A DNA stretch of 64,000 nt, taken from NCBI RefSeq assembly GCF_025725725.1, contig NZ_CP107020.1, positions 2,108,001 to 2,172,000 on the forward strand, given 5' to 3'. The translations under genes and the position numbers were made by a program. How positions within the stretch are numbered: the stretch's first letter is position 1; each line of letters starts with the position of its first letter. The notes under the pieces are model-generated. The model was not told where the DNA came from and ran no database searches. It saw only the letters and a program-made list of their open reading frames with translations. Shown piece by piece: positions 10,690 to 26,737 of this stretch. This DNA is from Brachybacterium huguangmaarense. GTDB taxonomy: Bacteria > Actinomycetota > Actinomycetes > Actinomycetales > Dermabacteraceae.

Positions 10690-11103
10690 CCGTGGTCCTC
10701 TCAGAGGAAGTGGTCAGAGCAGGTGTACGACGTAAGCCTGACACGTGGGGCCGACACACGGGCGCCGATCCGGGTACGGGATCCACGGTGAGGGCGCGAC
10801 GACGTCATTCCTGCTGGACCACGGACTCGCGCACGCGGACCGCACTGGCATCTGCACTGGTGCCTGGATCGGATGGAGCCGGGGGAGCCGATGGACGTGG
10901 GCTCGGCCCGCGTCGTTCGTGGCACGTCTGAAGGGGAGAGGGCCGAGCGTGGTCCGATGCAGGACGCGGCTTGGGTCGTGGGCCGCGGACTCCTCGGCGG
11001 GATCTCTGCACGAAACAGACCGGCCCCAGCATCTCGATGCTGGGGCCGGTCTTCGGGGTGCCTGAGTAGTACGTTCGGCAACTCCGCCCCCAAGACAAAA
11101 ACC
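10690..11103. other. intergenic stretch at the left edge of the island
   Basis: 414 bases without a supported gene. Frames on both strands are Arg-rich and look like shadows. Contains the strong hairpin at 11018-11051, and the change from chromosomal to island-like sequence probably lies here. Confidence 0.5.
11018..11051. terminator. strong symmetric hairpin, possible bidirectional terminator
   Basis: Perfect 15-bp stem (11018-11032 / 11037-11051) with a CTCG loop. On the minus strand it is followed by TGTTTCG, on the plus strand by TTCGGGG, so neither side has a full T tract. It may end transcription entering or leaving the island. Confidence 0.5.
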
Positions 11104-11517
11104 CTGGTCAACCGCCTAGAGCGTGGGGTCTACGAGGTCTCTCGACGTCCCCAGGATACCGCTCCGAAGGATGATCGTGGCCCTGTTGCGAGCACTGTCG
11201 AGACGGCTCAAACTTTTCTGACCGACTCCGAGGTGGACGCCCTCGTCGGCGACTACGTGGCCGGGATGAGCGTCAAGGCGCTCGCTGAGAGGTACGGCAT
11301 TCACCGCGCCACCGTGTTCTCCCATCTGCGTCGCCGCAACGTGCCGAGCCGCCGACCAAGGCTGGGGATCGACGAGAAGGCCGAGGCCGTGCGGCTCACC
11401 CGAGCGGGCGTCTCGATGCGGGCCATCGGTCGCCGGATGGGCGTGGACCGTAAGGCCGTGCGGGCTGCACTGGTCGAGGCTGGACTCATCGTGGACGAGG
11501 CGAGCGATGACTCGTAG
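11104..11517 (+). CDS. double helix-turn-helix protein, 5' end unresolved
   Basis: The open frame reads VNRLERGVYEV, an acidic linker, then FLTDSEVDALVGDYVAGMSVKALAERYGIHRATVFSHLRRR split over two parts, and a second HTH SMRAIGRRMGVDRKAVRAAL before ending IVDEASDDS. Two tandem HTHs of this kind occur at the end of serine recombinases or as stand-alone partners beside them. I see no ATG or GTG with a ribosome site in a sensible place; the frame continues upstream through the hairpin at 11018-11051, which is unlikely to be coding. So this is either a 5'-truncated gene or one using a rare start such as CTG 11104. Stops with TAG at 11515. Confidence 0.5.
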   Translation: MVNRLERGVYEVSRRPQDTAPKDDRGPVASTVETAQTFLTDSEVDALVGDYVAGMSVKALAERYGIHRATVFSHLRRRNVPSRRPRLGIDEKAEAVRLTRAGVSMRAIGRRMGVDRKAVRAALVEAGLIVDEASDDS

Positions 11518-11548
11518 CTGCGGTTCCGACTTGCTGATCCGTCGGTAG

Positions 11549-11584
11549 CTCTCGGCGCACCTCGTCGGTAACGAGCGCCGAGAG
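11549..11584 (+). promoter_or_regulatory. hairpin covering the ribosome binding site of the next gene
   Basis: Outer stem 11549-11557 / 11576-11584 (9 bp, perfect) with an inner CTCGT/ACGAG stem. The distal arm holds the GAGAGG of the Shine-Dalgarno (11581-11585) of the frame starting at 11591, so the fold would hide it. Confidence 0.5.
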
Positions 11585-11590
11585 GAACCG

Positions 11591-11884
11591 ATGATGACCA
11601 GCTTGAGTGAGGTCGCGAATGACGAGCACACCGCGAGGATGGTGCTGTCCATGCTCATCGAACCCAATGACCCGGTGACAGGACGCATCTTGTCCAGGCT
11701 CGGAGCAGTCGAGACGCATTGGCTCGCTGAGCGCGACGACGCGGTGGTGGGGCTGAGCCCTGTGGACGCGCAGGTCTGGAAAGCGGATCAGGCTCCGTTC
11801 GTCAGGCGAATCACTTGCGAAACGCCTACGTGGGGTCCAGTCTGGTACCAGAACGACGCAGCTCTACCGGAAAGATCCCCCTGA
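11591..11884 (+). pseudogene. DprA-like N-terminal fragment
   Basis: 97 codons from ATG 11591 (or 11594) behind GAGAGGAACCG. The first 65 residues, TARMVLSMLIEPNDPVTG through RLGAVETHWLAE and VDAQVWK, resemble the helical N-terminal domain of DNA-processing protein DprA. The Rossmann-like DNA-binding core that should follow is absent; the last 25 residues look unrelated. I read this as the stump of a dprA-like gene cut when the chaperone operon arrived. The assignment rests on pattern memory only. Confidence 0.4.
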
Positions 11885-11995
11885 AGCAGCCTGCTTCCTG
11901 AATCTGGGCACTCAGCCCTGCGCCTGCGCCGATCCTGGCGCGCTCTTTGACGACCCCTGAAACGTGTCTCACGCTACAAGAAAGGAACAATCATC

Positions 11996-13861
<1,866 letters not shown>

Positions 13862-13879
13862 CACGGAGGGAGGATCGCG

Positions 13880-14431
13880 ATGGTCGAGGGGCAGAACGAG
13901 GAGCAGAACGAGGACACGCGGGCCGTGGACCTGCTGAACGACGACCTCACCGACGTGTCCCCGGAGGAGATCCGCGCCGCGCAAGCAGCGGTCGCCTCCC
14001 AGTTGGAGACGGCCGAGGACCGGTGGCGCCGGGCGGCGGCGGACTACGACAACCTCCGCAAACGAACGGCGCGCGAGATCCAGACCGTCCGCGAGCAGGA
14101 GCGGCGGCACACCGCCAAGGCCTTCTTGCCTGTCGTCGACGGGCTGGACCGGGCGCTCAGCTCCGGGATGGACCTTGACGAGGGCGTTCTGGGTGGCATG
14201 AAGGCCGTCCGGGCGCAGGCCGCTGATGCGTTGCGCGCACTCGGGTACCCCGAGATTGTCACCGACGGTGCGGAGTTCGACCCGCAGCTGCACGAGGCGG
14301 TCTCGGTCGTCGAGGATGCCAGCGTCCCGCCGCGCAGCATCCTCGCCGTCACTCGCTCCGGGTTCGGAACGCCTGAGCGGATGCTGCGACCGGTTGCGGT
14401 CGTGGTCACCCGCAGGCCGGAGGAGGAGTAG
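13880..14431 (+). CDS. grpE: nucleotide exchange factor GrpE
   Basis: 183 residues. Acidic N-terminus, then a long dimerising helix (about 45-90: RWRRAAADYDNLRKR), a short helical bundle, and a C-terminal beta domain ending MLRPVAVVVTRR. The segments FLPVVDGLDRAL and GVxxMKxVxxQ-like GVLGGMKAVRAQ are family hallmarks. GrpE drives ADP release from DnaK. It starts 18 bases after dnaK with a GGAGGGAGGATCGCG ribosome site and lies 3 bases before the J-protein gene, so the genes are co-transcribed. TAG stop. Confidence 0.93.
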   Translation: MVEGQNEEQNEDTRAVDLLNDDLTDVSPEEIRAAQAAVASQLETAEDRWRRAAADYDNLRKRTAREIQTVREQERRHTAKAFLPVVDGLDRALSSGMDLDEGVLGGMKAVRAQAADALRALGYPEIVTDGAEFDPQLHEAVSVVEDASVPPRSILAVTRSGFGTPERMLRPVAVVVTRRPEEE

Positions 14432-14434
14432 GAG

Positions 14435-15307
14435 ATGGCGGAGGATCTCTACAGCGTGCTGGGGGTCTCCCGGTCGGCGGATCAGAAGGAGATCCGCCGC
14501 GCCTACCGGGAGAAGGCCCGCAAGTTCCACCCGGACGTCAACAAGGCCCCGGGGGCGGAGGAGACCTTCAAACGGATCAGTGAAGCCCACGATGTGCTGT
14601 CGGACCCGGAAACCCGCTCACAGTACGACCGGTTCGGTGAGAACTTCCGGCAGTACGCCGCCGCGGACGCGGCTCGCTCCTCCGAGCAGCCGCGCCGCAG
14701 CGGCGGCACCCGATACACGTGGAGCGGGGGCGGCGCGCAGAGCGTGAGCTGGGAGGACCTCTTCGGGGGCGGCTTCGGTGGTTTCGGTCGCGGCGCCGAC
14801 CAGACCGCGGAGCTGGAGATCACCGTCGAGGAGGCCTACCGGGGCGGGCGGCGCACGGTGCAGGTCGCGTCCCCGTACGGCGGCGCGCAGGAGTACACCA
14901 TCGACATCCCAGCGGGCGCTGTCGACGGGCAGCGGCTGCGGATCGCGGGCGCCGACGGACAGGACGGGGACCTGCTGGTCACGCTGCGCGTGAAGGACAG
15001 TAAGCGGTACCGGCTCAGCGGCGCGGACATCGAAACGGACCTCCCCATCTCACCGTGGGAGGCGGCGCTGGGCGCGGATGTCAGCATGCCCACCCCCGGC
15101 GGCCCGGTCACCGTGCACGTTCCGCCCGGCTCGTCCACTGACAGGCGGCTCCGCCTGCGCGGGCAGGGGATGCCGCGCAGGGGACAGCCGGGAGACCTGT
15201 ATGCGCGGGTGAAGGTCGTCGTTCCCCGCACTCTCAGCAAGAAGGAGAGGGAGCTGTTCGAACAGCTCCGCGACGAATCGTCGTTTGATGCCAGGAGAGG
15301 ATCATGA
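14435..15307 (+). CDS. J-domain co-chaperone, CbpA type (no zinc finger)
   Basis: 290 residues. J domain at 1-70 with the HPD triad in KFHPDVNK; a Gly/Ser/Phe-rich linker (about 75-125, [10 protein letters not shown]); then directly the two C-terminal beta domains ([40 protein letters not shown]). The CxxCxGxG zinc repeats of classical DnaJ are absent, so it is CbpA-like. It delivers clients to the neighbouring DnaK and stimulates ATP hydrolysis. It overlaps the cbpM-like gene by four bases (ATGA at 15304). Confidence 0.92.
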
Positions 15308-15615
15308 CCTCACATCACCTGCCCGTCCGTGTCGCCCGGGCCGACCTGGCCGCGACCGCCCTGGCCGCAGGTATCCACCCGGATACGCTGCGGAAGTTCG
15401 TCGAGCTGGGGCTGGTCACCGCCCACGTCGACACCAGCGGCCGGCTGTGGTTCGCCCGTACCGTCCCCGCCCGCGTGCACACCATCGTGCGTCTGCACTC
15501 CGATCTTGCCGTGAACTACGCCGGCGTCGCACTCGTGCTCGACCTGCTCGCCCGCATCGAGCAGCTCGAGCAGCACCGGACCATCCGACTCGAAGGAGAC
15601 ACCCCATGGACATGA
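15304..15615 (+). CDS. CbpM-like chaperone modulator (MerR-like HTH)
   Basis: 103 residues. N-terminal MerR-like helix-turn-helix (about 10-45: [21 protein letters not shown]) and a C-terminal helical part [26 protein letters not shown], that matches the CbpM pattern (RLxxDLxxNxxGxxLVLDLL). CbpM binds the J domain of CbpA and blocks it, and being next to a CbpA-type gene supports that reading. HspR, the repressor found at this place in other actinobacterial dnaK operons, is related in fold, so a DNA-binding role cannot be excluded. It overlaps cbpA by 4 bases and clpB by 10. Confidence 0.8.
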
Positions 15616-18233
15616 ACTCACTCACTCAGAAGTCGCAGGAAGCGCTCACCTCGGCCCAGAGCATCGCGGTCCAGGCCGGTCAGATCGAAACGGACGAGGA
15701 GCATCTCCTGCTCGCACTGCTGCAGCAGGAGGAGGGGCTGGTTCCCCGACTGCTGCAGACAGCGGGTGCTGACGTGGAAGCGGTACGCGCCGACGTCGAA
15801 GCGGAGATCGCCCGCAAGCCCAGCGTCTCCGGGTCCTCCCCGCAGACCGGTCAGGTGTACGTGAGCCGCAGCCTCACCTCCACCCTGGAACGGGCGGAGC
15901 GGGAGGCAAAGCGGCTGAAAGACTCCTACATCTCCGTGGAGCATCTCGTTCTGGCCCTCGTCGACGACTCCTCCAACCGTCCCGCGTCCCGCGTGCTGCG
16001 CGGGCACGGTGTCACCCGGGAGAGCTTCCTCAGCGCGCTCACCAAGATCCGCGGCAACCAGCATGTCAACTCCGCCACCCCCGAGCAGACGTACGAGGCG
16101 TTGGAGAAGTACGGCCGTGACCTGGTCGCTGACGCCCGGTTGGGCAAGCTTGACCCGGTCATCGGGCGTGATGCGGAGATCCGCCGGGTCATCCAGATCC
16201 TCTCCCGCAAGACCAAGAACAACCCCGTCCTCATCGGCGAGCCCGGTGTCGGAAAGACCGCCATCGTGGAAGGCCTTGCCCAGCGGATCTTGCGTGAGGA
16301 CGTGCCCGAGGGCCTTCGTGACAAGACCGTGTTCTCGCTGGACCTGTCTGCCCTGGTCGCCGGCGCGAAGTACCGGGGCGAGTTCGAGGAGCGAATGAAG
16401 GCAGTCCTGGCGGAGGTGAAGGCAGGGGAGGGACGCATCCTGCTGTTCATCGACGAGTTGCACACCCTGGTGGGGGCGGGAGCCACCGAAGGGGCGATGG
16501 ACGCCGGCAACATGCTCAAGCCGATGCTCGCCCGCGGGGAGCTGCACCTCATCGGTGCCACCACCCTCGATGAGTACCGCAAGCACATCGAGAAGGACGC
16601 TGCCCTGGAACGCCGGTTCCAGACGGTGATGGTCGAGGAGCCTGACGTGGAGGACGCGATCTCCATCCTCCGCGGCCTGCGCGAACGACTGGAGATCTTC
16701 CACGGTGTCCGCATCCAGGACAGCGCACTGGTCGCGGCCGCCGTGCTGTCCCACCGGTACATCTCCGACCGGTTCCTGCCCGACAAGGCCATCGACCTCA
16801 TCGACGAAGCCTGCGCGCGATTGCGAACCGAGATCGACTCAATGCCCGCTGAGCTCGACGAGCTGACCCGGCGGGTGACCCGCCTGGAGATCGAGGAAGC
16901 GGCGCTGTCGAAGGAAACGGACACTGCCAGCAAGAAACGGCTGAAGGAGCTGCGCCGGGAACTGACCGACCTGAAGGCGGAGGCGGACTCCAAGCGCGCC
17001 CAGTGGGAGGCGGAGCGTCAAGCGATCCGCAAGGTCCAGGAGCTGCGCGGTGAGCTGGAGCGGCTGCGGCGGGAGGCGGAGGAAGCTGAGCGCTCCTACG
17101 ACCTCAACCGTGCCGCTGAACTGCGGTACGGGGCTATCGCTGACGCGGAACGACGCCTGCACGCCGAGGAGGAGCGTCTGGCCACCAAACAAGGCCGGCA
17201 GAGGCTGCTGCGGGAGGTGGTCACCGAGGACGAGATCGCCGAGATCGTCGCAGCGTGGACGGGTATCCCCGTGGCCCGGCTGCAGGAAGGTGAACGCAAC
17301 AAGATCCTCACCCTGGACGCCACCCTCAAGGAGCGGGTGGTCGGTCAGGATGAGGCCATCACGCTCGTCAGCGACGCGATTATCCGTGCCCGCTCCGGCA
17401 TCCGCGACCCGCGCCGACCCATCGGCTCGTTCATCTTCCTCGGCCCCACCGGAGTGGGAAAGACCGAACTGGCCAAAGCGCTCGCGCAAGCACTGTTCGA
17501 CAGCGAGTCGGCAATGGTCCGGCTGGACATGAGCGAATACCAGGAACGTCACACCGTCAGCCGGCTCGTCGGTGCACCTCCCGGGTATGTCGGGTACGAC
17601 GAGGGAGGGCAGCTGACCGAGGCGGTGCGCCGCCACCCGTACAGCGTGGTCCTTTTCGACGAGATCGAGAAAGCGCACCCGGACGTTTTCAACACGCTGC
17701 TGCAGGTCCTCGACGACGGCCGCATCACCGACAGCCAGGGACGCACCGTCGACTTCCGCAACACCATCGTCATCATGACCTCCAACATCGGTGCCCATCA
17801 CCTGTTGGGCTCCGATGGCGGCGCGATCCCCGACGACGTGCGAAACAAGGTGCTCGGTGAGTTGCGCGCCCACTTCCGTCCCGAGTTCCTCAACCGGGTG
17901 GACGACATCGTGGTGTTCTCGCCGCTGGGTCGTGAACAGATCCAGGACATTGTGGAGCTGCAGTTCACCGAGCTGCGCTCCCGGCTGGCCGAGCGTCAGA
18001 TCCGCATCGAGCTGACGCCCGCGGCACGCCAGCTCATCGCTGACCGCGGCTACGACCCCGTGTACGGTGCGCGTCCGCTGCGACGCTACATCAGCCATGA
18101 GATCGAGACCCGACTGGGTCGTGCGCTGCTGAGCGGGGAGGTGATGGACGGGTCGACGGTCACGCTGGACGTGCAGGACGGCGACCTCGTCTTCAACATC
18201 GCAGCGCCCGTCGAAGAGGAGGACACGGCGTGA
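15606..18233 (+). CDS. clpB: ATP-dependent disaggregase ClpB (Hsp100)
   Basis: 875 residues, normal length. Two N-terminal Clp repeats (1-150), first AAA+ domain with GEPGVGKT (about 211) and FIDELH, a coiled-coil middle domain (about 410-530, rich in Glu/Lys/Arg), and second AAA+ domain with GPTGVGKT (about 612) and [14 protein letters not shown]. The pore loop motif KYRGEFEER is present. ClpB threads aggregated proteins and passes them to DnaK. It starts at ATG 15606 inside the end of the cbpM-like gene and its TGA overlaps the thioredoxin GTG, so the whole block is one translationally linked operon. Confidence 0.96.
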
Positions 18234-18682
18234 GCGCGATTGTGACCTGCCCCAACTGCGGGAAGAAGAACCGTGTCCCCGCCGCCGCGTCGGGGTACCC
18301 GCGCTGCGGCGTCTGCAAGAGCGCCGTGCCGTGGATCGTCGATGCGGGTGATGCGGACTTCGCCGAGGTGGTCGAGAAGGCCCCGCAAGTGGTGCTCGTG
18401 GACTTGTGGGCGACCTGGTGCGGACCGTGCCGGATGGTCAGCCCTGCCCTCGAGAAGGTCGCCACGGAACGTGCCGGCAAGCTCAAGCTGGTGAAAGTGG
18501 ACGTGGACGCCGCGCCGGAGACGGCCCGCAAGTTCTCCGTCTAGGCGGTGCCGACTCTGCTCATCCTCAACCAAGGGAACGTGCTCTCCCGCCAATCCGG
18601 AGCCGCCCCGCCGGACGTGCTGCTGCGCTGGGTGGACGAGGCGCTGCAGAAGAAGGCTGACTCGGCCGGTGCTGCTCGATGA
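18230..18682 (+). pseudogene. zinc-ribbon thioredoxin interrupted by an amber codon
   Basis: From GTG 18230: an N-terminal zinc ribbon (CPNCGKKNR ... RCGVCK), then a thioredoxin fold with active site WATWCGPCRM. After KFSV the frame meets TAG at 18542-18544, then continues without a break as AVPTLLILNQGN, SRQSG and a final helix to TGA 18680-18682. In intact TrxC-like proteins a Gln usually stands where the TAG is (FSVQAVPT), a single CAG to TAG change. The stop removes the cis-Pro loop and last strands, so the 104-residue product should not fold as thioredoxin. The true end still overlaps the next start (ATGA), showing the longer frame is ancestral. Confidence 0.8.
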
Positions 18683-18939
18683 GATATGTCGACCCGCACG
18701 TCCCGCTCATCCGCCCGGTCCGTTCCCGGACACCCGGGTCATGTGAGGACTGCGTGGCGGCCGGCACGCCCTGGCTGCACCTGCGGATGTGCCGCACCTG
18801 CGGGAAGGTCGGGTGCTGCGACTCCTCCCCGATGCGGCACGCCCGCACGCATGCGCTCACGGCGGGGCACCCCATCGTGCGGTCGCTGGAGCTGGGGGAG
18901 AACTGGAGCTGGTGCTACGTGGACGAAGCGTACCTATGA
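18679..18939 (+). CDS. UBP-type zinc finger protein
   Basis: 86 residues. Cys and His are spaced as in the zf-UBP domain: SCEDCVAAG, LRMCRTCGKVGCCDSS, RHARTHALTAGHP. Eukaryotic versions bind the ubiquitin tail; the small actinobacterial ones have no known ligand but recur beside a cNMP-domain thioredoxin-reductase-like gene, as here. It overlaps the thioredoxin frame and the reductase frame by four bases each (ATGA both times). All ligand residues appear intact, so this one is probably functional. Confidence 0.85.
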   Translation: MRYVDPHVPLIRPVRSRTPGSCEDCVAAGTPWLHLRMCRTCGKVGCCDSSPMRHARTHALTAGHPIVRSLELGENWSWCYVDEAYL

Positions 18940-20198
18940 GTGACACGCCCGCCGCCAACCGCCGCCAGGTCGCTCAGGCCGAGACGCCTGACACCATCGG
19001 CGCCTTCCCACGGCTCAGCGACGAGCAGATCGCGGTGCTGCTCGTACGAGGGCAGCGCCGCACACTCACCGACGGGGAGGTTCTCATCCAGCCCGGCGAG
19101 CACCCGTCCTCCCTCTATGTCGTCCTGGAAGGGCACCTGCTGACGGCGGACACCGAGCTTGCGGCGGATCCGCGTCACTCCGATGAGTCGTTGGCGGTCG
19201 AGGTGCACGGCCGCGGCCGGTTCGTGGGGGATGTCGGGCTGCTGGAAGGACAACCGTCTTTCGTGTTCGTCTCCGCCATCGGCGCCGCCGAGGTGGTGGA
19301 GGTGCCCGTCGATGAGCTGGAGGCCATCGTCACCTCGGATCTGCTGTTGGGTGAGATCATCCTGCGGGCCTACCTCATCCGCCGCTCCCTGGCCATCGGG
19401 GCGGGAGCGGGCCTGCGGATCGTCGGCTCCTGCTTCTCCCCGCGGACCCGGGATCTGCTGGACTTCATCGCACGAAACCGGCTGCCCCACCGGCTGGTGG
19501 ACCTGGATGAGGACGAGAAAGCGGAGCGGCTGGTCCGCCAGCTCGGCGCCACCGTCGCCGACTTCCCGCTGGTGATCCTCGGCGGCTCGCGCACCGTCCT
19601 GGGTGCCACCCCGGCACGGCTTGCCGAAGAGTTGGGGATGCGCCCGCCCGCCCCACCGGCCACCTGCGATGTGGTGGTCGTCGGCGCTGGGCCGGCTGGT
19701 CTTGCCGCGGCGGTGTACGCAGCCTCCGATGGGTTGTCGGTCTACCTGTGCGACGCGGTCGCCACCGGCGGGCAGGCGGGAACGTCAGCGAAGATCGAAA
19801 ACTATCTGGGGTTTCCCGCCGGAATCTCCGGCACTGAGCTCGCCGACCGCAGCCTCCTGCAAGTGCGCAAGTTCGGTGCCACGTTGGACATCCCGACCAC
19901 GGTCCAGGAGGTCGTGGAAGATGAGGACCGCTTCCGGGTGATCTTCGAAGATGGCAGTGAGGTCACCTCAGATGTGGTGGTCCTTGCCACCGGGGTGCGA
20001 TACCGCTCGCTTCCCGCCGCGGGGCTGGACCGGTTCCAGACCTCGAACTTGTTCTACGCGGCAACAGCGCAGGAAGCGCGGATGTGCGTAGACACACCTG
20101 TCGCTGTTGTCGGCGGCGGCAACTCCGCCGGACAGGCCGCACTATTTTTTGCCCGCACGTCCTCCCGTGTGCACCTTGTGGTGCGCGCCGCGGACTGA
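18936..20198 (+). pseudogene. cNMP-domain thioredoxin-reductase-like protein, cut by IS
   Basis: 420 codons remain. Residues about 20-150 form a Crp-like cyclic-nucleotide-binding beta barrel (GEVLIQPGEHPSSLYVVLEG). Residues 155-240 look thioredoxin/glutaredoxin-like (RIVGSCFSPRTRDLLDF). From 245 a TrxR-like FAD domain follows (VVVGAGPAGLAAAVYAA) and the start of the NADPH domain (VVGGGNSAGQAALFFA). There is no CxxC in the NADPH domain, where YAATAQEARMC stands instead, so disulfide chemistry would differ from true TrxR. The last sense codon is at 20193-20195 and the stop TGA is the terminal triplet of the IS at 20196. About 130 residues of the NADPH/FAD closing part are missing, so the enzyme is most likely dead. 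Confidence 0.85.
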
Positions 20199-20238
20199 AT
20201 CGCCCCGGGTCTGGTGGAGGCTCTGAATCCACGGGAGG

Positions 20239-20565
20239 ATGAGGAGCATGGCAGCACCGAGGAAGTACCCCGACGAGCTTCGGGAGAGAGCCACGAGGAT
20301 GGCAGTTCAGTCACGGCGCGATCCATCGACGAGGTCGGGAACGTTTCGCCGTGTGGGCGAGCAGCTCGGGATCAATCCTGAGACTCTGAGGAACTGGGTC
20401 GTGCAGGCCGAGGTTGACGAGGGGCACCGTCCCGGGACCACGACCAGCGAGTCCCAGCGCCTGGTCGAGCTGGAGAAGGAAGTGCGTGAGCTGCGCAGGG
20501 CGAACTCGATCCTGAGGTCAGCCTCGGCTTTTTTCGCGGCGGAGCTCGACCGCCCACAGCGTTGA
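20239..20565 (+). CDS. IS3-family transposase OrfA (IS A)
   Basis: About 105 residues; ATG 20248 (MAAPRKYPDEL) behind GGAGGATGAGGAGC is the likely start, with an upstream in-frame start at 20239. HTH of the HTH_Tnp_1 type (ERATRMAVQS ... GTFRRVGEQLGINPETLRNWV) is followed by a leucine-zipper helix (LVELEKEVRELRRANSIL). The end SASAFFAAELDRP overlaps orfB by four bases. The run TTTTTTC at 20529-20535 lies in position for a -1 ribosomal frameshift that would join OrfA to OrfB as the active transposase, as known for this family. Confidence 0.9.
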   Translation: MRSMAAPRKYPDELRERATRMAVQSRRDPSTRSGTFRRVGEQLGINPETLRNWVVQAEVDEGHRPGTTTSESQRLVELEKEVRELRRANSILRSASAFFAAELDRPQR

Positions 20566-21494
20566 TCGTGGAGTACATCGACCAGTACAGGCATGAGTTC
20601 GGCGTCGAGCCGATCTGTCGAACGCTGACCGCAGCGGGCACGCAGATCGCGCCGAGCACGTACTACGCGTTCAAGACCCGCCCACCCTCGAAGCGAGCAC
20701 TACGCGACGAGGAACTGCTGGTCGAGATCCACCGCGTCCATGCGGCGAACTTCGGCGTCTACGGGGCGAAGAAGGTCCACGCCCAGCTGCGCCGCGAGGG
20801 CGTCGTCATCGCGCGTTGCACGGTCGAGCGGCTCATGCGCGGCGCGGGGTTGCGAGGGGTCAGCCGGGCCAAGGGCCCGCGCACCACGATCTCCGGTCGT
20901 GGCCCGGATAATCGTCCTGACCTGGTCGAACGTGACTTCACCGCGACCGCTCCGAACCAGTTGTGGGTCGCGGACATCACCTACTGCCGCACCTTCGCCG
21001 GCTGGGTGTATGCCGCGTTCGTCATCGATGTGTTCTCCCGCCGCGTGGTCGGCTGGCAGCTGTCGAAGTCGCTGCGGACGGACCTCGCGTTGGACGCGCT
21101 CGAGATGGGCATCTGGACCCGCGATCACGCAGGCCAGGCCGTCTCCGGGCTCACGCACCACAGCGATAAGGGCGTTCAGTACGTCGCCATCCGCTACACC
21201 GAGCGTCTTGCTGAGGCCGGCGCGGCCGACTCGGTCGGCTCCACCGGCGACTCGTATGACAATGCCCTGGCCGAGGCCTTCAACTCGCTGTTCAAGGCTG
21301 AACTGGTCCGCAACCGCGGGCCCTGGAAGAACATCGACGACCTCGAGATCGCGACCGCGGAATACATCGACTGGTTCAATCACCGGCGACTTCACGGCGA
21401 GATCGGCATGATCCCGCCCGTCGAGCTCGAGGACACCTACCATCACAACCACCCCGCACCGGCACCCGCCGACGCGGCACTTGCGAGCCTCTAA
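20562..21494 (+). CDS. IS3-family transposase OrfB (IS A)
   Basis: 310 residues counted from TTG 20562, probably made mostly as an OrfAB frameshift product. HTH_21 region (YGAKKVHAQLRREGVVIARCTVERLM) precedes an rve integrase core with the DDE residues: Asp in WVADITYC, Asp in HHSDKGVQY, and Glu in NALAEAFNSLFKAEL with the conserved K after it. The C-terminus EYIDWFNHRRLHGEIG is typical. All catalytic residues are present, so the element may still be mobile. Confidence 0.92.
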   Translation: MIVEYIDQYRHEFGVEPICRTLTAAGTQIAPSTYYAFKTRPPSKRALRDEELLVEIHRVHAANFGVYGAKKVHAQLRREGVVIARCTVERLMRGAGLRGVSRAKGPRTTISGRGPDNRPDLVERDFTATAPNQLWVADITYCRTFAGWVYAAFVIDVFSRRVVGWQLSKSLRTDLALDALEMGIWTRDHAGQAVSGLTHHSDKGVQYVAIRYTERLAEAGAADSVGSTGDSYDNALAEAFNSLFKAELVRNRGPWKNIDDLEIATAEYIDWFNHRRLHGEIGMIPPVELEDTYHHNHPAPAPADAALASL

Positions 21495-21512
21495 CAAACC
21501 CGGGGCGATTCA

Positions 21513-21656
21513 GGCACGCCGACGTCCCTGCTTCCCGGCGAGATCCGCTCCTGAATCCGCCCCAGCGGTGAGTGTCGGGGGAGCGCAGAGGGCCACGGCC
21601 CTCAGCACTTACTCGGGCGTGGGCCAGCACCCGGTCCGGGCCCGGGCCTTTGGCGG
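21513..21656. other. short non-coding stretch right of IS A
   Basis: 144 bases. It does not encode the missing end of the reductase in any frame that I can recognise, so island sequence has been lost at the IS boundary. Confidence 0.5.
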
Positions 21657-22142
21657 TCAAGTCGTGGGACGGCTGGCGTCGAGCTTGGCCGTGGCCGCCT
21701 CGACGTACTCGGCCTCCACGAGGATCTCGTAGGAGGACGCCTCCAGGCCCTGGACGCTACTGAAGTCCCGGCGCCCGCCGGTGGCCGCGTGGCCCAGCAA
21801 CCCGAAGATCAGCCCCCACACCGCGCCCAGGAGCACCGCCCACAGGATTACCGACAGCCACCCCACGACCGTGAAAAGACCCAACAGCAAGCCAATGAGC
21901 AATCCCAGCCAGGCCCCGGAGGCGGCCCCGTACAGGGCGGCCTTGCCGTAGGTCATCCGCCCGGTGACCTGTTCAACCAGGCGCAGATCGGTGCCGACCA
22001 AGCGCACGTGCTCAACCGGGAACCCGGCGTCGGAGAGTCGATCGACAAGGCGCTGAGCCTGGTCATAGGAGGGCACTGTGCGCAGGACCTGGTAATGAGC
22101 CGAAGCAGTGGGTGGAAGAGGGGAGGGATGGGACATGCTCAT
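21657..22142 (-). CDS. GSP17M-like general stress membrane protein
   Basis: 161 residues. The N-terminal domain YQVLRTVPSYDQAQRLVDRL, AGFPVEHVRLVG, is the general-stress-protein 17M/YflT-like fold. A two-helix hydrophobic segment follows (about 68-125: GAASGAWLGLLIGLLLGLFTVVGWLSVILW), then a closing strand SSYEILVEAEYVEAA. Known members are induced by heat, salt or starvation in Gram-positives but have no defined activity. ATG 22142 (or ATG 22136) follows AAAGGAAACG. It lies on the opposite strand to the chaperone operon, so it has its own promoter. Confidence 0.8.
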   Translation of the reverse strand: MSMSHPSPLPPTASAHYQVLRTVPSYDQAQRLVDRLSDAGFPVEHVRLVGTDLRLVEQVTGRMTYGKAALYGAASGAWLGLLIGLLLGLFTVVGWLSVILWAVLLGAVWGLIFGLLGHAATGGRRDFSSVQGLEASSYEILVEAEYVEAATAKLDASRPTT

Positions 22143-22891
22143 CGTTTCCTTTCGTGGTGACGATCCGACCTTGCGCGCGGACCAGGCCCGCAGTCACAGA
22201 GTGTAGTTGGCCCCGGTCTCCAGCAGACAACAGAAAGACCCGAACGCATCAAGGTCCTTGCGCATCAGCTCGGCCACGGCCGTGGCTCCTCTCCGGGTCC
22301 TCAGCCCCGTCCCCGAGCCCGTCGGTCCGTGGTGAACCAGCGACGGGCCCGCTCTCAGGGCCTTACAGAATGTCGCGGACCTTACCAGGATAAGCATATT
22401 TATCTCTGCAGTCAACACCCGGCCCGTCTTCGGCGCCTCGTGCCACACATGCCTTCCCGCTCGGGTTGCGGCGGGCCATAATTCGCCTTTCACGTGCCCG
22501 GCTTGCCGTCTTCGGAGCTGGGCCTTGACACCCCTGCACCGGGTACCCCCGCATCAGTACCGCACCTGCCGCTGGGCAGTCGATGCATCACCTGTCCGAA
22601 CGGAATCGACCGGCCCACGCTGATCACTGCTCCCACACCGCCGAAGCACTTCAACCGATCCGTCACTGCAGCATCATCGAGAAGCCGTCCTCGACACCGG
22701 CAGGTCCCGGGCCCGCTGGCTGTGATGTCTTCGCGCTGGCGGCGTCGGCGGGGAGAGGATTTCGCAGTGAGCAGCACCGCTCTTTCCGGGATCGAGGCGA
22801 CCACCGAATCCGGCCCGCGGTGCTGCACGAAACCTTGGGGGCCCCATCGAGCCAGTGGCAGTCCGGCCCGTGGTTGCCTCACCATGGAGCG
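22143..22891. other. 749-bp region without a convincing gene
   Basis: Frames on both strands overlap and are Pro/Arg/Ser-rich with no domain. It should hold the divergent promoters of the stress protein and of the membrane protein. An AT-rich pocket around 22375-22410 (containing GCATATTTATCT) stands out from the G+C-rich surroundings and could be a promoter or an old junction. A perfect 14-bp palindrome lies at 22273-22286. Confidence 0.5.
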
Positions 22892-23962
22892 GTGACTGCT
22901 AATCCTGCCGAACCCCTTTCCGATGCCGAGCTGCTCATCGGCCTGGTGGTCTCACCATCCCTGAGTGCGGTGCTCGGCCCCGAGGTCACCACCTCGGTGC
23001 GCGAGATTTTGGTGCAGCGGTATCCGGGAGTGCGCTGGCAACTGAAGATGGCCGAAGACCGGCTGGTCGATCCACCCACCGAGACCTTGGACCTGCTGGA
23101 GGCGGCCCGAAACCGCGTGCTGGAGGAGAACTGGGATTTGGCCGTGGTGCTCACCGAGATCCCCCTGAAGACCGGCCGACGTCCGGTGCTCACCCAGCTC
23201 AGCCCCGTGCACGGGGTGGGACTGGTCTCCGTCCCAGCCCTGGGAGCCGTGCACGTGCGGCAGAAGGTGCAAGAGACCACCGTGCACGTGGTCGGGCAGC
23301 TCCTGGGCTACGACGCCGAAGACCTCAACGCCCAGCGGGATCTTGCTCGAAGAGCCCACCAGCTGTCCACCGATCTCGACGAACGCCCGGATGACAACGT
23401 CGTGCAGTTCACGGCCCGAGTGCTGAGCAGCAACGTGCGGTTGCTGCTGGGCATGATCCGCGCCAACCAGCCTTGGGCCTTCGTGGCCCGGCTCTCCCGG
23501 GCGCTGGTCGTGGCAACGGCCACCGGCATGCTGACATTGGTGGCCTCGGACCTATGGGTACTGGCCATGGCCTACGGGCCGGTGCGCCTGGTCCTGCTGG
23601 CGGTGATGGCGATCGGGGCGGTGAGTGCCACCCTGATCCTGGGAGCCGACTTGTGGGAGCGCCCACGGCGGCGAGCCCAACGTGAGCAGGTGATCCTGTT
23701 CAATTTGGCCACCACCGCGACCGTGGCCATCGGGGTTGTGGTGTTCTACCTCGTCTTATTCATCCTGTCCTGGGTCGGCGCGCTGCTGCTCATCGACGAG
23801 CAGGTACTGGCCGGTGTCGCCGGTCACCCAGTGAACGCTTTGGACTACGCGAAGATCAGCTGGCTCACCGCCAGCCTGGCCACCGTGGGCGGAGCACTAG
23901 GAGCTGGACTGGAGGACGAAGATGTGGTGCGCGCCGCTGCCTACACCCGGTCCAGCACCTGA
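22892..23962 (+). CDS. unknown membrane protein with soluble N-terminal domain
   Basis: 356 residues from GTG 22892, preceded by GGAGC. Residues 1-190 are soluble: a mixed alpha/beta part with SVREILVQRYPGVRWQLKMA, WDLAVVLTEIPL, and VHGVGLVSVPALGAVHV, then a charged helix. Residues about 195-356 hold four membrane helices (ALVVATATGMLTLVASDL; VRLVLLAVMAIGAVSATLIL; TVAIGVVVFYLVLFILSW; ISWLTASLATVGGALGAG). I do not recognise the family. Nothing in it shows a Walker, HExxH or other catalytic motif. Position beside chaperone and stress genes suggests a stress-linked role by association only. The frame extends upstream to 22583, but that part is low in coding character. Confidence 0.65.
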   Translation: MTANPAEPLSDAELLIGLVVSPSLSAVLGPEVTTSVREILVQRYPGVRWQLKMAEDRLVDPPTETLDLLEAARNRVLEENWDLAVVLTEIPLKTGRRPVLTQLSPVHGVGLVSVPALGAVHVRQKVQETTVHVVGQLLGYDAEDLNAQRDLARRAHQLSTDLDERPDDNVVQFTARVLSSNVRLLLGMIRANQPWAFVARLSRALVVATATGMLTLVASDLWVLAMAYGPVRLVLLAVMAIGAVSATLILGADLWERPRRRAQREQVILFNLATTATVAIGVVVFYLVLFILSWVGALLLIDEQVLAGVAGHPVNALDYAKISWLTASLATVGGALGAGLEDEDVVRAAAYTRSST

Positions 23963-24470
23963 CACAGCCCCAGCACAGAAGAAACTGAAACATCTACGCG
24001 TTGATGCCACGTCTATGCAGGTGTCATTGCCGGTCGCGATGACTTGGTAGGCTCAGCGCAGTGCGCTGCCTCGTACTCGGCGGGTGGGGCGTTGCCGAGG
24101 CGGGTGTGCGGGCGGGCGCTGTTGTACCTGTCGATCCAGGCCAGGGTGAAGCACTCGACGTCGTCGACGGATCGCGGCGGTCCGGGCTGAAACCGGGAAT
24201 GATCCCGGACCGCTTCGTTTGACGAACGCAGGAGGTGTCTAAAAGTGCGCTGTCCGCCGTGGGAAGCGACGATCTTCTCGCGACTGGTTACCGGCGCCTG
24301 GTCATTGCCAACATGCGGCAAAGCCTTGTGGTATCCGTGTAGGGCGATGACCACCTGCGCCTAGCCGTGGAGGATGAGTAAGAGGTTCCGCTATTAGGTC
24401 ATGGTCGTCGGGTCGGGCGGGTGGCCTAGCGGTGGGTGGTCCAGGCCTCGCGGAGGAGCCTGCGAGTGAT
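23963..24470. other. IS debris between the membrane protein and IS B
   Basis: 508 bases. Apart from the transposase tail at 24013-24174, no gene is seen; frames are short and several contain stops in all registers. Confidence 0.6.
24013..24174 (-). pseudogene. C-terminal remnant of another IS3-family OrfB
   Basis: The minus-strand frame reads RSVDDVECFTLAWIDRYNSA then RPHTRLGNAPPAEYEAAH, the typical C-terminus of IS3-family transposases (WIDxYNxxRPHxxLGxxxPxEYE). No catalytic core is left. It differs from both complete elements, so a third IS once sat here. Confidence 0.75.
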
Positions 24471-24497
24471 TGAAGCGCCCTGGGCTTTGTTCCGTGG

Positions 24498-25412
24498 TTA
24501 GACGGTCGCGGGCGCGGTCGTCGTGGGGTGAGTGTAGGACGCTTCGACTTCCGCGGGGGTGCGGTAGCCGAGCGCTTCGTGCAGACGCTCGGTGTTCCAC
24601 CAGTGGACCCAGCCCATGGTGGCGATCTCGACCGCCTGGGTGGACTCCCAGATCCGCTGGGAGTGGATCAGCTCGGCCTTGAACAGGCCGTTCACGGTCT
24701 CGGCCAGGGCGTTGTCGTAGGAGTCTCCGACGGAGCCGACTGAGGCGGTGACCCCGGCGGTGATCAGCGCATCGGAGTAGGCCAACGAAACATAGTGGGC
24801 CCCGCGGTCGCTGTGATGGATCAGTCCGCTCTGGCAGCGCACGGCACCACTGGTCAGCAGTGCGTGCTCCAGCGCCAGCAGGGGCAGGCCGTCGGTATGG
24901 AGGGTCGCAGCGACCGCCCATCCGACGATCTTGCGAGTGCATACGTCGGTGATGAACGCGACGTAGCAGAATCCGGCGAGGATCCGCACGTAGGTGATGT
25001 CAGCGACCCACAGGCGGTTCGGCTGCTCTGCAGTAAAGCACCGCTCGACCAGATCCGGGCGGGCATCGGGCACGTGAGTGGGGTATGTGGTGACCGGCTT
25101 CCGGCCACGCCGTACCCCCTGAAGGCCAGCTCCTCGCATGAGCCGGGCGACCTGGTCACGGCCCACATCCCAGCCAGCGCGCCGCATCGCGTGATGCATC
25201 TTCCGCACCCCGTAGACGCTGTAGTTCTCGGCATGGATGCGCCGGATCTCCGGCAGGAGAACCTCATCCCGCAGCGCCCTGGCCGAGGCTGGGCGCGTCT
25301 TGGCGGCCCGGTAGCCGCGGGAGGTGATGAACCCACACTCTGTCGCGCTGAGCGCGCGGCAGATGGCCTCGACCCCGAACTGATCACGGTGCTCATCGAT
25401 GAACCGGATCAT
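24498..25412 (-). CDS. IS3-family transposase OrfB (IS B)
   Basis: 304 residues from ATG 25412. HTH_21 part VYGVRKMHHAMRRAGWDVGRDQV; integrase core with Asp in LWVADITYV, Asp in IHHSDRGAHYV and Glu in NALAETVNGLFKAELI; C-terminus WVHWWNTERLHEALGYRTP. All three catalytic acidic residues are present. It overlaps orfA by four bases in the -1 frame. Confidence 0.92.
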   Translation of the reverse strand: MIRFIDEHRDQFGVEAICRALSATECGFITSRGYRAAKTRPASARALRDEVLLPEIRRIHAENYSVYGVRKMHHAMRRAGWDVGRDQVARLMRGAGLQGVRRGRKPVTTYPTHVPDARPDLVERCFTAEQPNRLWVADITYVRILAGFCYVAFITDVCTRKIVGWAVAATLHTDGLPLLALEHALLTSGAVRCQSGLIHHSDRGAHYVSLAYSDALITAGVTASVGSVGDSYDNALAETVNGLFKAELIHSQRIWESTQAVEIATMGWVHWWNTERLHEALGYRTPAEVEASYTHPTTTAPATV

Positions 25413-25723
25413 CTCGTCGTGGGGCGGTCGAGTTCCGCGGCGAAAAAAGCCGAGGCCGCTTTGAGGATCTCGTTGGCACGGCGGGATTCAGCCAGTTCAC
25501 GGCGCAAACGCCGGTTCTCCTCCTCGAGTGACTCGCCGCTGCCGGTGACTGGTTCGGTGGGGCCGTAGCGGTTGCACCAGATCCGCAGGGTCTCCAGGCC
25601 GACACCGAGTTGGGGTGCGATGGCCCGGATCGACTCTGCGCGCGGGCCTCCCTCGCGGGCCTGGCGCTCGTAGACCATCCGCACGGCGCGGTCACGCAGC
25701 TCGGGACTGAACTTCTTGGGCAT
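25409..25723 (-). CDS. IS3-family transposase OrfA (IS B)
   Basis: 104 residues from ATG 25723 behind AAGGAG. HTH: RDRAVRMVYERQ ... SIRAIAPQLGVGLETLRIWCNRYG; then a leucine-zipper helix SLEEENRRLRRELAESRRANEIL and the end SAFFAAELDRPTTR. The complement of A6 at 25443-25448 gives TTTTTTC, the expected -1 slip site before the overlap with orfB. Confidence 0.92.
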   Translation of the reverse strand: MPKKFSPELRDRAVRMVYERQAREGGPRAESIRAIAPQLGVGLETLRIWCNRYGPTEPVTGSGESLEEENRRLRRELAESRRANEILKAASAFFAAELDRPTTR

Positions 25724-25771
25724 ACTACGATTCTCCTTGCTGAGACTCGGAACAGAACCCAGGACGCTTCA

Positions 25772-26669
25772 CCCGTACTACAAGGGCAGCGTGCGCTACC
25801 AAGGCGTCACCTACGCCGGAGCACACGAGGCCATCGTCCCCAACGAAGTGTGGGACCAGGTTTAGACCGTGCTCGGCACACACCGCTCGGCCGCGGACGC
25901 AACGCAGGTGCACGAGCACTACTTGAAGGGGACGGTGTTCTGCGGGCAGTGCGGCTCGCGACTGATCGTGTGTAACGCGAAGAGCAGCCAAGGCACGATC
26001 TACCCGTACTTCGTGTGCGCGAGCCGGCACGGCGGCAGGGGCGACTGCACCCGACAGGCGATGCTGATCGAGCAGGTGGAACGACTCATCGAACGCTTCT
26101 ACGCCAAGGTGCAGATCGACCCAGAAACGATCGAGGCGGTCTCGGCGATGATTCACGCCCGGTTCGACGAAATGATGGCCGAAGGAGCCGCCGAACTCGC
26201 CGACCTCGCATCCCGGAGGGCACAGCTCGGAGGCGAGCAACAGAAGCTGCTCCAGGCTCACTACGCAGGGGCGATCCCGCTCGACCTGCTCAAGCGAGAG
26301 CAGGACCGGATCACCGCTTCATTGGAGACCATCGAGTACCGGATCACCGCGCACCACGGCCACTACGCCGACGCGAGAGAGAACCTCGAGGACTCACTGT
26401 CATTGCTGTCGAACGCCGCCGACATCTACGAACGCGCCGACGATCCGAATCGTCGCCTCCTCAACCAGGCGCTGTTCAAAACGATCTACATCGACGAGGA
26501 CAACGACGTGCGGGTCGGCTACCACAACCCGTACGACGGGCTGAGCATCCCCGGCCTCCATGCCGACGCCCTGAGCTGGGCCGCCAAGGCAAAGAAAATG
26601 GGCCAGACTGACCCCGCGACCAAGGGCGGACCCTTGGTCGCGAGTTCACACCTGACCCGTTTGGGGTGA
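25772..26669 (+). pseudogene. serine recombinase C-terminal part, IS-cut and amber-interrupted
   Basis: Directly after IS B the frame reads PYYKGSVRYQGVTYAGAHEA and VPNEVWDQV, the recombinase domain of large serine integrases, then TAG at 25863-25865, then TVLGTHRS in the same frame. Next come a zinc ribbon (CGQCGSRLIVCNAK, FVCASRHGGRGDCTR), a coiled coil (about codons 95-200) and the C-terminal domain. Intact relatives have Gln at the stop (WDQVQTVLGTH), again CAG to TAG. The catalytic N-terminal resolvase domain is absent. GTG 25869 could restart translation of 266 residues, but that product cannot recombine DNA. The stop TGA lies inside the 3' end of tRNA-His. Confidence 0.85.
26615..26642. 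repeat. 12-bp perfect inverted repeat at the end of the recombinase frame
   Basis: Arms 26615-26626 and 26631-26642 (CGCGACCAAGGG and its complement) with a CGGA loop, about 20 bases before the tRNA-His 3' end. It could be a terminator between the convergent recombinase and tRNA, or part of the island end. Confidence 0.6.
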
Positions 26670-26737
26670 TCGACGGGATTTGAACCCGCGACCGCCTGGA
26701 CCACAACCAGGAGCTCTACCAACTGAGCTACGACCAC
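26662..26737 (-). tRNA. tRNA-His (GTG)
   Basis: Cloverleaf read on the minus strand: acceptor GTGGTCG / CGATCAC with one G-U pair, D arm GCTC..GAGC, anticodon stem CCTGG / CCAGG with loop TTGTGGT (anticodon GTG), T arm GCGGG TTCAAAT CCCGT, discriminator C and an encoded CCA (26662-26664). The recombinase stop codon falls within its 3' end. Confidence 0.95.

What the first reader, a model, noticed from the sequence alone, without database searches (positions are those of the whole stretch)
11060..26661. Mobile proteostasis and thiol-repair island in an actinobacterium
dnaK, grpE, cbpA, cbpM, clpB, thioredoxin, UBP zinc finger and a cNMP-domain reductase-like gene lie in one operon with overlapping stops and starts, followed by a GSP17M protein and an unknown membrane protein. 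Recombinase parts lie at both ends, against a tRNA-His gene. The set resembles in concept the transmissible stress-tolerance loci known in proteobacteria, but with actinobacterial parts and the UBP/reductase pair. I do not know an established description of this combination.
Basis: partly seen in the sequence, partly recalled or inferred. Interest (0 to 1): 0.85.

Follow-up and report, generated by a model that had tools for sequence, protein, structure and literature searches.

The report
Mobile second chaperone operon, partly decayed
This stretch is a partly decayed copy of a travelling set of protein-repair genes that some actinobacteria carry on plasmids or chromosomes beside their normal set, and copies of it generally lack the DNA switch that controls the normal set.

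Summary
11996-20198 is a tight operon: dnaK, grpE, cbpA, cbpM, clpB, thioredoxin, UBP zinc finger, cNMP-domain flavoenzyme. The thioredoxin has an in-frame TAG; an IS3 element truncates the flavoenzyme.

It is an acquired second set. The genome has a core dnaK-grpE-dnaJ-hspR operon and clpB elsewhere. Two of 37 other same-genus genomes carry the block (97%), at other places. By DnaK, it is in 9 of 395 other Actinomycetota genomes and on 21 plasmid records, one of them typed conjugative. Cassette and core DnaKs form two fully supported groups.

New points. An HspR operator lies before 15 of 15 core dnaKs, but before 1 of 41 cassette dnaKs, and that one is 1.5 kb away. All 9 loci chosen by DnaK keep dnaK-grpE-cbpA-cbpM-clpB; the thiol arm varies. 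The flavoenzyme family lacks the thioredoxin-reductase CxxC and keeps one invariant Cys (48 of 48), so 'thiol repair' is doubtful. Thioredoxin is broken differently in all three species.

Most likely an HspR-independent accessory disaggregation system; like the proteobacterial tLST in concept, not a member. Stress function is inferred.

The parts
11079..11517 (+). helix-turn-helix protein, left remnant of a recombinase-type element
   Evidence: 60% aa to L074:13759-14178, which lies with the same recombinase end near tRNA-His of G021
11867..20195 (+). stretch shared at about 97% with G032 and G013; outer limits of the shared cassette
   Evidence: blastn
11996..13861 (+). dnaK, second copy
   Evidence: PF00012 1.1e-250; TIGR02350 958.6 bits, cut-off 822.55; 54% to core DnaK
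13880..14431 (+). grpE
   Evidence: PF01025 6.1e-31
14435..15307 (+). cbpA-type J protein
   Evidence: PF00226 and PF01556
15304..15615 (+). cbpM-type protein in the hspR slot
   Evidence: PF13591 2.7e-14; under the cut-offs of both HspR and CbpM models
15606..18233 (+). clpB, second copy, 875 aa
   Evidence: TIGR03346 1344.6 bits, cut-off 1232.1; 55% to core ClpB
18230..18544 (+). thioredoxin, closed early by an in-frame TAG
   Evidence: PF00085 1.3e-19
18679..18939 (+). UBP-type zinc finger protein, 86 aa
   Evidence: PF02148 1.9e-12; 2IDA 1e-33
18936..20198 (+). cNMP-domain thioredoxin-reductase-like flavoenzyme, truncated
   Evidence: PF00027, PF07992; full length 570 aa in G032
20196..21513 (+). 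IS3-family element that cuts the flavoenzyme (orfA 20239-20565, orfB 20562-21494)
   Evidence: PF01527, PF00665; terminal inverted repeats read
21657..22142 (-). GSP17M / YflT general stress protein
   Evidence: PF11181 9.6e-22; relatives just upstream of dnaK on several plasmids
22398..23960 (+). segment 97.7% identical to a Rhodococcus plasmid; holds the membrane protein 22892-23962
24498..25768 (-). second IS3-type element
   Evidence: PF00665, PF13276; orfA frame
25869..26669 (+). C-terminus of a large serine recombinase, N-terminus missing
   Evidence: PF13408 1.8e-9; 63% aa to L074:18315-19082
26662..26737 (-). tRNA-His(gtg), presumed target site
   Evidence: ARAGORN

Best explanation
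The block is an acquired second proteostasis cassette: a DnaK-GrpE-CbpA-CbpM-ClpB team that would disaggregate and refold protein, made apart from the cell's core team. Shown here: it is an extra copy, sporadic, foreign by composition, at different places in three species, on plasmids in several families, and its DnaK is a lineage apart from core DnaK. Also shown by sequence: the HspR operator found before every core dnaK tested is missing near cassette dnaKs, so the cassette is probably outside the HspR/DnaK feedback loop. Inferred: under stress it adds disaggregation capacity that the core loop does not shut off; CbpM restrains CbpA; a PucR-type regulator beside many copies, or a promoter before the Hsp20/GSP17M lead genes, sets expression. 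The UBP plus flavoenzyme pair is a module also found without chaperones in other phyla; it was joined to the chaperone core and is easily lost. In the window the chaperone part is intact, the thioredoxin and flavoenzyme are broken. The likely vehicle was a serine-recombinase element at tRNA-His, now reduced to fragments.
For: Extra to a core dnaK operon and clpB. 2 of 37 same-genus genomes, other sites. GC 66.6% against 72.1%; GC3 of cassette against core 0.883/0.972 (dnaK) and 0.853/0.966 (clpB). 9 of 395 other Actinomycetota genomes with DnaK 71-82%, next best 64%. 21 plasmid records with DnaK 77-85%, next 64.8%; one typed conjugative. DnaK tree split 100/100. Operator: 15 of 15 core, 1 of 41 distinct cassette loci, that one at -1500. 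Order of the five chaperone genes kept in 9 of 9 loci chosen by DnaK. dN/dS 0.13-0.32 for dnaK and clpB. A DnaK, CbpA, GrpE and thioredoxin region of Rhodococcus opacus R7 rose 2.3-3.7 fold on o-xylene (PMC7434839, passages).
Against: No stress phenotype was measured. Inside the cassette clade families are partly kept together, so part of the spread may be vertical. No intact integrase, no direct repeat and no clean empty site were found. grpE (dN/dS 1.57 against G032) and UBP (1.0 against G032) do not show clear constraint in every pair. L085 has a 10-of-14 operator-like site at -188 (4 of 60 shuffles as good, 10 of 40). The identity of the R. opacus R7 region with this cassette was not checked by sequence.
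Confidence: 0.65

Rival explanations
1. An old actinobacterial paralogue, inherited mainly vertically and often lost; plasmid copies are incidental.
For: In the DnaK tree Streptomycetaceae rows, and Mycobacteriaceae with Rhodococcus rows, stay together, and the cassette clade is deep.
Against: 97% identical copies at three different places in 3 of 38 same-genus genomes; lower GC3 than core copies; 21 plasmid records; a 97.7% segment shared with Rhodococcus plasmids.
Confidence: 0.2
2. In this genome the island is a dead relic with no present function.
For: Thioredoxin stopped by TAG, flavoenzyme cut by IS3, recombinase in fragments, two insertion sequences.
Against: dnaK, grpE, cbpA, cbpM and clpB are open at full length, with dN/dS 0.13-0.32 for dnaK and clpB against both relatives.
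Confidence: 0.15
3. The chaperone team serves its plasmid, for example by remodelling replication or partition proteins, and host stress tolerance is a by-product.
For: Frequent plasmid location.
Against: Also in chromosomal-size contigs (for example L087, 8.7 Mb) and carried with Hsp20, GSP17M, DUF1931, universal stress and FtsH genes.
Confidence: 0.1
4. The UBP plus flavoenzyme pair is the functional centre and the chaperones only assist it.
For: The pair is found without chaperones in loci of Bacteroidota, Gemmatimonadota, Myxococcota, Acidobacteriota and Bradyrhizobium.
Against: The chaperone core persists where the pair is absent or looks degenerate (L031, L217, L218, L219, L227) and where the flavoenzyme is cut, as in the window.
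Confidence: 0.08

Closest known systems
[quoted passage not shown]
   Same: A mobile block of extra proteostasis genes with a Clp disaggregase; plasmid or island location; related companions on some actinobacterial copies (Hsp20, FtsH, HtrA-like protease, PsiE)
   Different: Carries canonical ClpB with its own DnaK, GrpE and CbpA, not ClpK/ClpG; no sHsp20, KefB, HdeD or PscA/PscB (YfdX) gene was found among the scanned island ORFs of the window
Core actinobacterial dnaK-grpE-dnaJ-hspR operon under HspR (PMC2687793, passages seen)
   Same: Same first four slots in the same order
   Different: No HspR operator near the cassette, CbpM-type protein in the hspR slot, clpB joined on; DnaK 54% identical to the own core
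Low-molecular-weight thioredoxin reductase and AhpF
   Different: First Cys of the CxxC absent in 48 of 48; one other Cys invariant; N-terminal cNMP-type domain and a middle domain added
Bacterial UBP zinc finger of unknown function, PDB 2IDA
   Same: E 1e-33 over nearly the whole protein
   Different: 2IDA is listed only as a hypothetical protein; its gene neighbours were not examined here
Stress region of Rhodococcus opacus R7 (PMC7434839, passages seen)
   Same: DnaK, CbpA, GrpE and thioredoxin region, up 2.3-3.7 fold on o-xylene; ClpB also up
   Different: Not described there, in the passages seen, as mobile or as a separate locus class; sequence identity with the cassette not checked

Membership tests
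tLST / LHR | ClpK/ClpG-type disaggregase | tested here: not met
   ClpG model 784.4 and ClpK model 779.8 bits against cut-offs of 1900; ClpB model over its cut-off
tLST / LHR | sHsp20, KefB, HdeD, PscA/PscB companions | tested here: not met
   Not among the ORFs of 10873-26669 given to Pfam; short ORFs were not all scanned. G032 has an Hsp20-like remnant upstream of dnaK
tLST / LHR | confers heat and chlorine resistance | not testable with these tools
   needs deletion strains
HspR-controlled dnaK operon | HspR (HAIR) operator before dnaK | tested here: not met
   window 8 of 14, 40 of 40 shuffles as good; core dnaKs 15 of 15 positive
HspR-controlled dnaK operon | hspR as fourth gene | tested here: not met
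   HspR model 42.7 bits, cut-off 105; the own core operon has an HspR-like fourth gene
CbpM | NCBIfam CbpM model over its cut-off | tested here: inconclusive
   37.2 bits, cut-off 138; plasmid relatives are annotated CbpM
ClpB | TIGR03346 over its cut-off | tested here: met
   1344.6 bits, cut-off 1232.1
Thioredoxin-disulfide reductase | redox-active CxxC | tested here: not met
   Ala/Gly/Ser/Trp/Thr in place of the first Cys in 48 of 48 rows, by the alignment to 4zn0
Thioredoxin-disulfide reductase | FAD/NADPH two-domain fold | tested here: met
CAP-type cyclic nucleotide receptor | phosphate-binding Arg of the cassette loop | tested here: inconclusive
   Pfam cNMP_binding 1e-10. Arg: none of 48 at column 113, not among the 46 residues tallied at column 112, 8 of 48 at column 111; the placing against CAP is from a recalled sequence
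tRNA-targeted integrative element | intact integrase | tested here: not met
   only a serine-recombinase C-terminus
tRNA-targeted integrative element | direct repeat of the tRNA end at the far side | tested here: not met
tRNA-targeted integrative element | related element at the same tRNA in relatives | tested here: met
   1 of 14 relatives fetched (G021, L074) has both end proteins there

The most novel reading that the evidence does not exclude
Actinomycetota share an unnamed class of mobile stress island whose complete DnaK-ClpB team has been cut loose from the HspR loop, and whose UBP finger plus single-cysteine flavoenzyme is a new, phylum-crossing sensor or repair pair: the finger recognises a tail or tag on damaged protein and the NADPH-driven flavoenzyme acts through its invariant Cys, under control of an unknown ligand of the cNMP-type domain.
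Probability: 0.25. Interest if true: 0.85.

Novelty: new variant of a known kind. Interest (0 to 1): 0.6.

Why it matters
Mobile stress loci are described for Proteobacteria. A counterpart in Actinomycetota with a whole DnaK/ClpB team outside the HspR loop makes it directly testable whether a second, unrepressed chaperone set buys survival, and at what cost. The name 'thioredoxin-disulfide reductase' given to some of these flavoenzymes in public annotation looks wrong, and the UBP/flavoenzyme pair is a defined target for biochemistry.

Tried and rejected
Direct repeat of the tRNA-His end as att site: not found. Left flank of the window beside tRNA-His in relatives: in the 14 stretches and the loci the only matches left of the tRNA were insertion sequences, the two end proteins in L074 and a DUF488-like stretch in L074, so no clean empty site. 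Sigma-70 and terminator scans: 1 found against 0.6 expected and 3 against 4.9. A TTTGA-N3-CCCCTG-like motif before dnaK: only in the three same-genus copies among the upstream sequences tested. CIRCE operator: best matches 8-11 of 18, no control run. Phage origin of ClpB: the 8 listed of 167 phage records are 54.5-63.6% identical. Anti-phage families: none for UBP, membrane protein, GSP17M or flavoenzyme. Azospirillum plasmid DnaK as a member of the clade: 62%, rejected, though its plasmid has a similar mix of stress genes. A conserved Cys in the middle domain of the flavoenzyme: Cys in 6 of 48, rejected. The fold searches cover only residues 244-566 of the model; the cNMP and middle domains were not searched alone. 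Paper searches gave no description of this operon as a locus class; the library is open-access PMC only. No tool named the genus; by size, GC and family it may be Brachybacterium (a guess from memory).
Full report
What is there. The window is 2108001-2172000 of contig 1 of a 3.26 Mb genome. The operon 11996-20198 holds dnaK, grpE, cbpA, cbpM, clpB, thioredoxin, a UBP zinc finger and a cNMP-domain flavoenzyme; gene ends overlap or nearly touch. Two faults are plain: the thioredoxin frame is closed by a TAG at 18542-18544, and an IS3 element from about 20196 cuts the flavoenzyme. Downstream are a GSP17M protein on the minus strand, a 356-aa membrane protein, a second IS3-type element and the C-terminus of a large serine recombinase that ends in tRNA-His.

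It is a second set. The genome has a core dnaK-grpE-dnaJ-hspR operon, a core clpB and a clpC-like gene elsewhere. The window DnaK is 54% identical to the core one. Composition differs: island 66.6% GC, rest of the window 72.1%; GC3 of cassette against core is 0.883 against 0.972 for dnaK and 0.853 against 0.966 for clpB, which controls for gene family.

It is sporadic and moves. The whole 8105-bp query matches at 97% in 2 of 37 other same-genus genomes, G032 and G013; 0 of 9 other same-family and 0 of 71 same-order genomes have it at that length, and one of the latter (G074) has 75-77% pieces on a short contig. Some of the 37 are incomplete, and a DNA search misses divergent copies. Homology with the window runs from 11867 to 20195 and stops. 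G032 and G013 share 9.4 kb with each other in the stretches compared. G032's copy is about 770 kb from its tRNA-His; G013's is on another contig than its tRNA-His. Among 396 Actinomycetota genomes, 9 besides this one have a DnaK at 71-82%; the next best is 64%. Among plasmids, 21 records hold one at 77-85%; the next is 64.8%. Several of the 21 are closely related strains. One host plasmid is typed conjugative, four mobilizable, three non-mobilizable. At least 13 of the 21 also hold the flavoenzyme, going by the 40 of 438 rows listed.

The vehicle. In genome G021 the same recombinase end (63% aa) adjoins tRNA-His and the same helix-turn-helix protein (60% aa) lies about 4 kb further off, with other cargo between. 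This was 1 of 14 relatives fetched. So tRNA-His is a likely target of this recombinase family, but the window holds fragments only and no direct repeat. The part 22398-23960 is 97.7% identical to Rhodococcus plasmid DNA, while the chaperone genes are about 77% identical to theirs, so the island is a mosaic. Of 8 plasmid records with the membrane protein at 78% or more, 6 also carry a cassette dnaK.

Order across the phylum. For the 9 genomes chosen only by DnaK, the order dnaK-grpE-cbpA-cbpM-clpB holds in 9 of 9; trx is in 8, the flavoenzyme in 8, a UBP beside it in 7, all eight genes in one run in 6; a relative of the membrane protein within the 18-20 kb stretch in 5, a PucR-type regulator in 5, GSP17M in 4. 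Of the 80 loci found by the flavoenzyme, 17 have the dnaK hit, all titled as Actinomycetota; UBP was detected in 25, among them loci of Bacteroidota, Gemmatimonadota, Myxococcota, Acidobacteriota and Bradyrhizobium without chaperones. Of 16 genomes behind these loci, 15 have a cassette-type DnaK (73-85%) and 16 a core one (57-62%).

Phylogeny. In the DnaK tree of 56 rows (44 different), 41 cassette rows and 15 core rows are split with 100/100 support; the window groups with G013 and G032 (100/100), then with Diaminobutyricibacter (100/97). The core set came from 15 genomes, all Actinomycetota by source. Inside the cassette clade families are partly kept together, so old vertical descent and transfer both play a part.

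Regulation. The HspR operator (consensus in PMC2687793, passages seen) was scored in up to 1.5 kb before dnaK. All 15 core dnaKs have it (11-14 of 14 bases; 0 of 40 shuffles as good). Of 33 cassette loci, one (L031) has a 12-of-14 match at the far end of the stretch, -1500; the other 32 have at most 10, with 7 or more of 40 shuffles as good. With 350 bp only, L085 scored 10 of 14 with 4 of 60 shuffles as good. Nine more loci have none; one of them, L224, is the same locus as L095, so 41 distinct loci in all. Before the own core clpB the best site is 10 of 14 with 3 of 40 shuffles as good. The fourth-slot protein scores under the cut-offs of both HspR and CbpM. What does drive the cassette is open: a PucR-type gene lies near 10 of the 32 loci, but not in the window.

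Selection and decay. Between the window and its two relatives dN/dS is 0.16 and 0.16 for dnaK, 0.13 and 0.32 for clpB, 0.47 and 0.16 for cbpA, 0.49 and 0.28 for cbpM, 1.57 and 0.41 for grpE, 1.0 and 0.18 for UBP, 0.45 and 0.45 for the flavoenzyme part. The thioredoxin is broken in all three, by different changes. On two R. qingshengii plasmids thioredoxin- and flavoenzyme-like matches lie between clpB and DUF1931 without a listed gene, which fits remnants, though that gene table is incomplete; on a Nocardia and an Arthrobacter plasmid none was found beside clpB. So the chaperone core is the stable part.

Function. There is one lead from print: in Rhodococcus opacus R7 a region with DnaK, CbpA, GrpE and thioredoxin rose 2.3-3.7 fold on o-xylene (PMC7434839, passages seen). 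That it is this cassette is likely by gene names but was not checked. Stress tolerance remains inferred. Likeness to tLST (PMC8407380, passages seen) is in concept; its defining disaggregase is not met.

Noticed in passing
L107, L112, L114, L121, L122, L127, L128, L131, L136, L146, L153, L155, L163: UBP zinc finger gene beside the cNMP-domain flavoenzyme without the chaperone genes, in several phyla: the pair is a module of its own.
   Followed up: partly
L030:17181-18926 and other plasmid records: Public annotation calls some of these flavoenzymes thioredoxin-disulfide reductase although the CxxC is absent in the family.
   Followed up: yes
18230-18544 and its counterparts in G032 and G013: The thioredoxin is broken by different changes in all three same-genus copies, while dnaK and clpB stay open.
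   Followed up: partly
L074:13732-19085: In G021 the tRNA-His site holds another element with the same recombinase end and helix-turn-helix protein but other cargo.
   Followed up: partly
34-489: A stretch 73% identical to L074:15324-15762, inside the G021 element near tRNA-His; the region left of the island may also be mobile.
   Followed up: no
L219:14359-19020: TniQ, ATP-binding, HTH and TnsA-like genes (Tn7-like set by annotation) lie a few kb from the cassette on a Rhodococcus plasmid.
   Followed up: no
L195: Azospirillum brasilense plasmid with grpE, dnaK, clpB, Hsp20, HdeD, PsiE, DegQ and universal stress genes together; DnaK only 62% to the cassette.
   Followed up: no
11888-11995: A TTTGA-N3-CCCCTG-like motif occurs once before dnaK here and in G013 and twice in G032, and not in the other cassette upstream sequences tested.
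   Followed up: no
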